From the IMG/VR virus record IMGVR_UViG_3300037264_002957, positions 1 to 54,088 of that record: a stretch of 54,088 nt of DNA. One strand, written 5' to 3'. Shown piece by piece: positions 11,631 to 11,753 of this stretch; the first letter of the stretch is position 1; each line of letters begins with the position of its first letter. The position numbers and the translations under genes are program-made. Source of the DNA: a virus. The notes below the pieces were generated by a model. It was not told the origin of the DNA, did not search any database, and saw only the letters and a list, made by a program, of their open reading frames with translations.

Positions 11631-11753
11631 TGCCGGTTACTGCGCAGCTTACATGCAGCTCAACGGTTGAGCATTTGCCCAGAGCAAAGGGTTGTTGGTT
11701 CGATTCCAACCATACGCGAAAGCGTAGCAGCGCGACTCGCCGGCATGTTTTTT
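11631..11753 (+). ncRNA. Structured RNA 3 of 3: tRNA-like module closed by a GAAA tetraloop on a Y-RNA-type stem
   Basis: Basal helix TGCCGG (11631-11636)/CCGGCA (11740-11745) has TTACTG on the left and CGACTCG on the right, as in RNA 2. Inside are D arm GCTC-AACGGTT-GAGC, a short anticodon-like hairpin TTTGC-CCAGA-GCAAA and T arm GTTGG-TTCGATT-CCAAC. The acceptor strand ATACGC is joined by GAAA directly to its partner GCGTA. It therefore has no free 3' acceptor end and cannot be an ordinary tRNA. TGTTTTTT (11746-11753) ends the unit, 15 nt before the Ro60-like gene. Confidence 0.7.

What the first reader, a model, noticed from the sequence alone, without database searches (positions are those of the whole stretch)
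11631..11753. Second tRNA mimic with a tetraloop-closed acceptor stem and shrunken anticodon loop
The 3' acceptor strand ATACGC is joined by GAAA to its partner GCGTA, so no aminoacylatable end exists. D and T arms are canonical, while the anticodon hairpin has either a 5-nt loop or a 4-bp stem. Its permutation point (between acceptor and D arm) differs from that of the neighbour (variable region), so two distinct permutations of the tRNA fold hang on the same type of basal stem.
Basis: partly seen in the sequence, partly recalled or inferred. Interest (0 to 1): 0.78.

Follow-up and report, generated by a model that had tools for sequence, protein, structure and literature searches.

The report
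Phage Y RNA that mimics tRNA
This virus of bacteria carries small non-coding RNAs that look like transfer RNAs but cannot be charged, encoded just before the gene for their partner protein (a relative of the human Ro60 autoantigen); the RNA in question keeps the normal tRNA order instead of the scrambled order described for its known bacterial cousins, and both forms often occur side by side.

Summary
The feature is real. Window 11630-11747 (Y3) is the last of three tandem Y RNAs directly upstream of a phage Ro60/Rsr gene (11769-13265; no Pfam hit, but a predicted TROVE + vWA fold, Z about 20 to Ro60/Rsr). Basal stem, D, anticodon and T arms are supported by covariation in 23 related RNAs. The tetraloop-closed acceptor end, canonical D/T arms and shrunken anticodon loop are as described. 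The stated permutation point is probably wrong. Across 25 relatives the bases just 5' of the D arm pair with the bases just 3' of the T arm, far above shuffles, and some relatives lack the tetraloop hairpin. In Y3 the 3' acceptor strand CAUACGC would then pair with GCGU (after GAAA) plus AUG (before the D arm): a 7-bp acceptor helix with a split 5' strand, the D-AC-T order being native. The neighbour Y2 is a true permutation (T-acceptor-D-AC), the order of Rfam YrlA. Thirteen loci carry both forms. Best reading: phage Rsr-binding Y RNA with an unchargeable tRNA-like effector domain of near-native topology, a new variant of the YrlA kind. Binding, modification and function are untested.

The parts
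11630..11747 (+). Y3, the Y RNA of the finding (type A: basal stem - D arm - anticodon arm - T arm - capped acceptor helix - basal stem)
11632..11636 (+). Y3 outer basal stem, 5' strand GCCGG (pairs with CCGGC 11740-11744)
11638..11655 (+). Conserved motif UACUG-CGCA-GCUUACAUG: Ro-site internal loop, inner stem 5' strand (GCGC 11642-11645) and linker
   Evidence: exact match shared with Y2; forward strand only in relatives
11653..11655 (+). AUG, inner part of the split acceptor 5' strand; pairs with CAU 11711-11713
   Evidence: Rfam tRNA alignment; pairing supported in relatives; not in the RNAfold MFE
11658..11672 (+). D arm GCUCAACGGUUGAGC
11674..11688 (+). Shrunken anticodon arm UUUGC CCAGA GCAAA
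11694..11710 (+). T arm GUUGG UUCGAUU CCAAC
11711..11725 (+). Acceptor helix: 3' strand CAUACGC 11711-11717, GAAA tetraloop 11718-11721, outer 5'-strand part GCGU 11722-11725
11730..11744 (+). Inner stem 3' strand GCGC, CGACU motif and outer basal stem 3' strand
11748..11753 (+). U6 tract just after the Y3 basal stem, 5' of a likely rsr ribosome-binding site (AGGGG 11755-11759)
   Evidence: sequence; not called as a terminator
11482..11617 (+). Y2, Y RNA of the permuted (YrlA-like) type: T arm 11509-11525, acceptor 11526-11532/11542-11548 closed by AUUCAUUAC, D arm 11551-11566, anticodon arm 11568-11584 (UGU)
   Evidence: (ARAGORN calls the rotated module tRNA-Thr(UGU)), 66, 78
11316..11463 (+). 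Y1, first Y RNA of the tandem; degenerate T-arm-like hairpin 11344-11358, acceptor-like stem 11359-11365/11414-11420 with a long insert
11277..11306 (+). Weak sigma-70-like promoter match upstream of Y1
   Evidence: 1 found, 0.3 expected by chance
11769..13265 (+). Rsr/Ro60-like protein (498 aa): TROVE-like helical ring plus vWA domain with MIDAS residues
11107..11266 (+). tRNA-Phe(GAA) and tRNA-Lys(CUU), ordinary tRNA genes next to the Y RNA cluster

Best explanation
Y3 is a phage-encoded Y RNA, made together with Y1 and Y2 next to the gene of its protein partner, a phage Rsr (Ro60 homologue). Its 5' and 3' ends form a basal stem whose conserved internal loop (UACUG / CGACU) is the probable Rsr-binding site. 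On top sits a tRNA-like effector domain in native D-anticodon-T order. Its acceptor helix is capped by a GAAA tetraloop and its 5' strand is split in two (GCGU + AUG), with the basal stem leaving from the split, so it has no free CCA end and cannot be aminoacylated. Y2 carries the permuted YrlA-type domain. Inferred mechanism: Rsr holds the RNA by the basal stem and the tRNA-shaped domain docks a tRNA-recognising partner, most likely host PNPase as in the Rsr/Y RNA/PNPase machine, or tRNA-binding or tRNA-cutting enzymes. Inferred from topology: in type A the Rsr-bound stem leaves from the acceptor end and exposes the elbow and anticodon arm; in type B it leaves beside the anticodon arm and exposes the acceptor end. 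Shown here: anatomy, covariation, neighbourhood, protein fold (predicted). Not shown: expression, binding, modification, function.
For: Rsr: AlphaFold model pLDDT 89.2 from 45 homologues; best solved matches are TROVE/Ro60/Rsr, E 7e-10 to 1e-6, Z 18-21 over more than 410 residues, next group vWA-only at Z 14; MIDAS D298, S300, S302, T359, D383 invariant. RNA: motif 54:0 on the forward strand upstream of related rsr genes; structural descriptor 97:4; 26 of 29 consensus pairs with compensatory changes, covering basal, inner, D, AC and T helices; Rfam tRNA match in native order. Split acceptor: leading complementarity of the strand before the D arm with the strand after the T arm is 84 pairs in 25 RNAs against 24.8 +- 6.5 in shuffles (0 of 20,000), peak only in register; with uncurated parses 68 against 22.1 +- 6.5. 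Type A hairpins start 2-8 nt after the T stem, while in the permuted type the acceptor nearly always abuts it. Hairpin-less relatives keep the native acceptor pairing (L131 9 bp, L124, L106, L113, L122). In Y3 the 3' strand before the loop is exactly 7 nt.
Against: RNAfold gives AUG:CAU a probability near 0.001 and charges 4 kcal/mol for it; three pairs in one RNA are weak by themselves, and a few type A relatives (L104, L100d, L094d, L101, L108) show 0-1 leading pairs. Shuffles do not remove relatedness, and I chose the type A set and its parse. Rfam YrlA does not recognise Y3, and matches Y2 only at 14.2 bits against a cut-off of 69. No expression or binding data; the PNPase step is borrowed from Deinococcus via reviews.
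Confidence: 0.72

Rival explanations
1. One reading: a genuine circular permutation with the break between acceptor and D arm; the 5-bp UACGC-GAAA-GCGUA hairpin is the whole acceptor and nothing pairs with AUG.
For: RNAfold minimum-energy structure has this hairpin without AUG:CAU, P 0.71-0.99 for its pairs; in several relatives the native acceptor pairing is only 0-2 bp.
Against: Strong in-register pairing of the pre-D and post-T strands across relatives; hairpin never abuts the T stem in type A but usually does in type B; relatives without the hairpin keep the native acceptor.
Confidence: 0.2
2. The tRNA-like Y RNAs are decoys (or competitive inhibitors) for host tRNA-cutting defence enzymes; type A presents an anticodon arm for this purpose.
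For: 19 of 24 parsed type A RNAs keep a normal 7-nt U33 anticodon loop, with many different anticodons; they lie in tRNA gene clusters; such an inhibitor role was proposed for Salmonella YrlA (PMC7790460).
Against: Y3 itself has a 5-nt loop; in Salmonella YrlA is not cut by the RecA-dependent nuclease (PMC7790460); no defence target identified here; a decoy would not obviously need Rsr.
Confidence: 0.2
3. Y3 is a cis-acting leader of rsr: Rsr binding to the Y3 stem just upstream of the rsr start regulates rsr expression.
For: Y3 basal stem ends at 11744, a U6 tract follows, and rsr starts at 11769; the last Y RNA is close to rsr in several relatives.
Against: Several tandem units, in relatives up to about 2 kb upstream; elaborate tRNA modules are not needed for a leader; bacterial Y RNAs act in trans.
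Confidence: 0.15
4. Decaying tRNA gene in a phage tRNA cluster that only looks like a mimic.
For: Adjacent to tRNA-Phe/Lys and a downstream tRNA cluster; tRNA score 34 bits with truncated acceptor.
Against: Conserved basal stem and motif shared with Y1 and Y2 and with dozens of rsr loci; compensatory changes in all helices.
Confidence: 0.03

Closest known systems
YrlA (Y RNA-like A, Rfam RF02553; crystal structure 6CU1 of the Salmonella tRNA-like module)
   Same: Rsr-linked non-coding RNA with 5'/3' basal stem, D and T arms and an acceptor helix closed by a loop; reported as a circular permutation of tRNA (PMC11472068) and a DusA/TruB substrate (PMC8394870). Y2 shares its T-acceptor-D order.
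   Different: Y3 has native D-AC-T order with a split acceptor strand; Y3 gives no YrlA hit and Y2 only 14.2 bits (cut-off 69); three Y RNAs of two topologies stand in tandem.
Ro60 / Rsr (TROVE domain proteins), including the solved Ro60 of Thermus phage phiLo (9l5y) and D. radiodurans Rsr (2nvo)
   Same: Predicted fold and size; helical ring plus vWA domain with MIDAS residues.
   Different: 12-17% identity to the solved Ro/Rsr/TROVE chains in those alignments; no match to the Pfam TROVE model.
Putative Rsr/Y RNA locus of Listeria phage CKA15 (PMC12282133)
   Same: Phage-encoded Rsr homologue within 2 kb downstream of highly transcribed putative non-coding RNAs.
   Different: That paper proposes but does not verify Y RNAs, and the passages read describe no tRNA-like topology.
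YrlB (Rfam RF02565)
   Same: Y RNA gene found near rsr; our short type C units may play the same part (inference).
   Different: No tRNA-like domain in the type C units; not a model for Y3.

Membership tests
Bacterial Y RNA (general sense) | Encoded next to an rsr/Ro60 gene | tested here: met
   Y3 lies directly before rsr (its last base 11747, rsr ATG 11769); same arrangement in related loci
Bacterial Y RNA (general sense) | Basal stem of 5' and 3' ends with a conserved Ro-site loop | tested here: met
   compensatory changes in both parts of the stem
Bacterial Y RNA (general sense) | Binds Rsr | not testable with these tools
   needs biochemistry
YrlA, Rfam RF02553 | Covariance-model score at or above 69 bits | tested here: not met
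   Y3 no hit; Y2 14.2 bits, E 5.3
YrlA, Rfam RF02553 | tRNA-like domain with D and T arms and loop-closed acceptor | tested here: met
YrlA, Rfam RF02553 | Permuted order T arm - acceptor - D arm | tested here: not met
   Y3 has D - AC - T order; Y2 does meet it
YrlA, Rfam RF02553 | Pseudouridine and dihydrouridine made by TruB and DusA | not testable with these tools
   T and D loops are present as substrates only in principle
Rsr/Ro60 protein | Ring of helical repeats plus vWA domain | tested here: met
   predicted model only:
Rsr/Ro60 protein | MIDAS motif DxSxS, T, D | tested here: met
   D298, S300, S302, T359, D383 invariant in 45 sequences
Rsr/Ro60 protein | Match to the Pfam TROVE model | tested here: not met
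   no Pfam family at E 0.001; phrog_850 RNA-binding protein 2e-7
Functional tRNA | Free acceptor end that can carry CCA | tested here: not met
   3' acceptor strand runs into GAAA
Functional tRNA | 7-nt anticodon loop with U33 | tested here: not met
   5-nt loop CCAGA, or a 7-nt loop with C33; ARAGORN makes no call even with the acceptor rejoined

The most novel reading that the evidence does not exclude
Phages of this group deploy two topological classes of tRNA-mimicking Y RNA on the same Rsr: the known permuted class, which presents the acceptor side, and a native-order class with a split, tetraloop-capped acceptor, which presents a real anticodon arm. Both were built repeatedly from captured tRNA genes, so that one Rsr ring can engage different tRNA-recognising host enzymes, for example anticodon nucleases on one side and PNPase or acceptor-end enzymes on the other.
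Probability: 0.25. Interest if true: 0.75.

Novelty: new variant of a known kind. Interest (0 to 1): 0.5.

Why it matters
tRNA-mimicking Y RNAs are known with a permuted domain. A second, native-order class in the same operons shows that the Rsr stem can be attached at two different points of the tRNA L, which makes it testable which face of the mimic recruits partners. The cluster offers three natural variants on one Rsr for such a test. Practically, several of these RNAs score like real tRNAs under the Rfam tRNA model, so phage tRNA counts near rsr genes can include Y RNAs.

Tried and rejected
Plain blastn/tblastn against phage records found only tRNA-level DNA matches and one 29.5%-identical Rsr in a 595-kb uncultured phage. 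A single-sequence protein scan of viral contigs failed; the RNA motif scan supplied the first relatives. AlphaFold without an alignment was useless (pLDDT 47); with 45 homologues it worked. HMM search against PDB sequences gave nothing relevant. ARAGORN does not recognise Y3 even with the acceptor strand rejoined, so the split-acceptor model rests on comparative pairing, not on a tRNA caller. RNAalifold on the MAFFT alignment predicts neither the split acceptor nor the tetraloop hairpin, probably because both regions vary in length and are misaligned. The fold of the outlying type A unit L152:852-978 is not better than shuffles (z -0.45), so it is weak support. Primary papers on YrlA (Chen 2014, Wang 2018, Sim 2018/2020) were not held, so priority of the native-order class could not be checked against them.

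Full report
WHAT IS THERE. The window is one IMG/VR virus record of 54,088 bases, with a P22-like portal gene at 19358. After tRNA-Phe and tRNA-Lys (11107-11266) come three tandem units with the same 5' motif (UACUG-N4-6-GC(U)UACAUG) and 3' motif (CGACU): Y1 11316-11463, Y2 11482-11617 and Y3 11630-11747. Then follows a 498-aa protein, 11769-13265. Y3 is the finding.

MORE THAN CHANCE. The Rfam tRNA model hits 11653-11713 at 34.2 bits (cut-off 29) in native order, model positions 5-66. The fold is 2.6 sd below shuffles for Y3, 3.95 for Y2 and 4.1 for Y1. The decisive evidence is comparative.

THE PROTEIN. It has no Pfam hit and only phrog_850 'RNA-binding protein' (2e-7). A motif scan of viral contigs led to loci encoding relatives at 46-54% identity; their alignment (A1) found 53 viral loci and three genome-contig loci. 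A 45-sequence alignment gave an AlphaFold model with pLDDT 89. Its best solved relatives are the TROVE domain, D. radiodurans Rsr, Ro60 of animals and Thermus phage phiLo Ro60, at Z 18-21 against 14 for the next group, vWA domains alone. MIDAS residues are invariant. This is a phage Rsr/Ro60.

THE RNAs OF RELATIVES. In the 1.5 kb upstream of related rsr genes the relaxed 5' motif occurs 54 times on the forward strand and never on the reverse. A structural descriptor (motif, inner stem, outer stem) finds 97 forward against 4 reverse units; loci often carry several. Three kinds recur. Type A: D-AC-T, usually followed by a GNRA or UUCG hairpin (Y3). Type B: T-acceptor-D(-AC) (Y2), which is the order of the Rfam YrlA model and of 6CU1, reported as a circular permutation (PMC11472068). 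Type C: short units without a tRNA module. By my parsing 23 loci have type A, 19 have type B and 13 have both. L080 and L014 were found by RNA motif only; L014 has not been shown to lie near an rsr gene. RNAalifold on 23 type A RNAs recovers basal stem, inner stem, D, AC and T arms; 26 of 29 pairs show compensatory changes.

WHERE IS THE BREAK IN Y3. I tested whether the strand ending two bases before the D stem pairs with the strand starting after the T stem, as in an ordinary tRNA. In 25 type A RNAs the leading complementarity sums to 84 pairs; reassigning the 3' strands among RNAs gives 24.8 +- 6.5, and none of 20,000 shuffles reached 84; sliding by 1-3 bases drops it to 6-33. With machine-made parses only: 68 against 22.1 +- 6.5, again 0 of 20,000. 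Examples: L131 GGUUACAUG:CGUGUAACC (9 bp, no hairpin), L112 UGAAUA:UAUUCG, L085 ACAUA:UAUGU, L124 UGCUU:AAGCA, L092 ACAU:AUGU. The tetraloop hairpin is absent in several of these and, when present, begins 2-8 nt after the T stem, whereas in type B the 7-bp acceptor nearly always abuts the T stem. In Y3 the strand between T stem and GAAA is exactly 7 nt, CAUACGC, and can pair fully with GCGU (after the loop) and AUG (before the D arm). Y3 is therefore best read as a native-order tRNA whose 7-bp acceptor helix is capped and whose 5' strand is split by the basal stem. Caveats: nearest-neighbour energies prefer the 5-bp hairpin without AUG:CAU by 4 kcal/mol; some relatives show 0-1 leading pairs; relatedness is not removed; the curated set is my choice.

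OUTSIDE THIS PHAGE GROUP. A 595-kb uncultured phage with a 29.5%-identical Rsr carries a Y RNA whose module matches the tRNA model over its full length, 69.3 bits, in native order. In 14 TROVE-bearing genomes of the phylum drawn around an acidobacterial MAG, most loci show a YrlA match, all but one below the family cut-off; only L152 looks like type A, and its fold is not better than shuffles. Of six loci drawn around a Verrucomicrobiota-type MAG, five have YrlA matches. So the native-order class seems rare in bacterial loci and common in these phages.

HOW IT PROBABLY WORKS. Known (PMC8394870): YrlA's basal stem holds Rsr, its tRNA-like domain is a substrate of DusA and TruB, and Rsr/Y RNA/PNPase forms an RNA-degrading machine. 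By inference Y3 tethers phage Rsr to a tRNA-recognising partner. The attachment point differs: type A leaves from the acceptor end and exposes elbow and anticodon arm; type B leaves beside the anticodon arm and exposes the acceptor end. 19 of 24 type A RNAs keep a 7-nt U33 loop with many anticodons; Y3 does not. Capture from tRNA genes is likely: rotated Y2 is called tRNA-Thr(UGU), and eight parsed type B units keep a CCA just after the acceptor 3' strand. A decoy role against anticodon nucleases has been suggested for YrlA (PMC7790460) and is not excluded.

VERDICT. Real, a Y RNA, a tRNA mimic, in a phage; the permutation claim is corrected. Phage Y RNAs and tRNA-like Y RNAs are known as a kind. 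New variant of a known kind; interest 0.5.

Noticed in passing
window 11482-11617 and L086, L088, L094, L100, L122, L124, L134: Permuted (type B) Y RNAs; several of the relatives keep a CCA directly after the acceptor 3' strand inside the closing loop, as if recently made from tRNA genes.
   Followed up: partly
L087:3471-3541, L122:87-160, L100:3022-3093, L131:3840-3912, L085:3740-3812, L146:1802-1873: Type A Y RNAs score 53-69 bits as full-length tRNAs with the Rfam model, so tRNA annotation near rsr genes may contain Y RNAs.
   Followed up: partly
L152:988-1105: A possible type A unit built on a class II tRNA with a long variable arm, closed by GCAA, in a bacterial-genome TROVE locus amid tRNA genes.
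   Followed up: no
window 10372-10893; upstream of rsr in L082 and L104: HNH_5 endonuclease gene near the cluster; HNH-like reading frames also lie directly upstream of rsr in two relatives.
   Followed up: no
window 14508-14602: Possible unannotated tRNA in the downstream tRNA cluster (acceptor GTGGCGT/ACGCCAC, CCA end, anticodon-like loop CTGTAGA) with an odd D arm.
   Followed up: no
window 14029-14097: Perfect 11-bp stem CAACCAGGCGG/CCGCCTGGTTG enclosing about 45 nt in the tRNA cluster; possible further structured RNA without the Y motif.
   Followed up: no
window 11316-11463: Y1 has a degenerate T-arm-like hairpin and a long extension between its acceptor-like strands; its relation to types A and B was not resolved.
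   Followed up: partly
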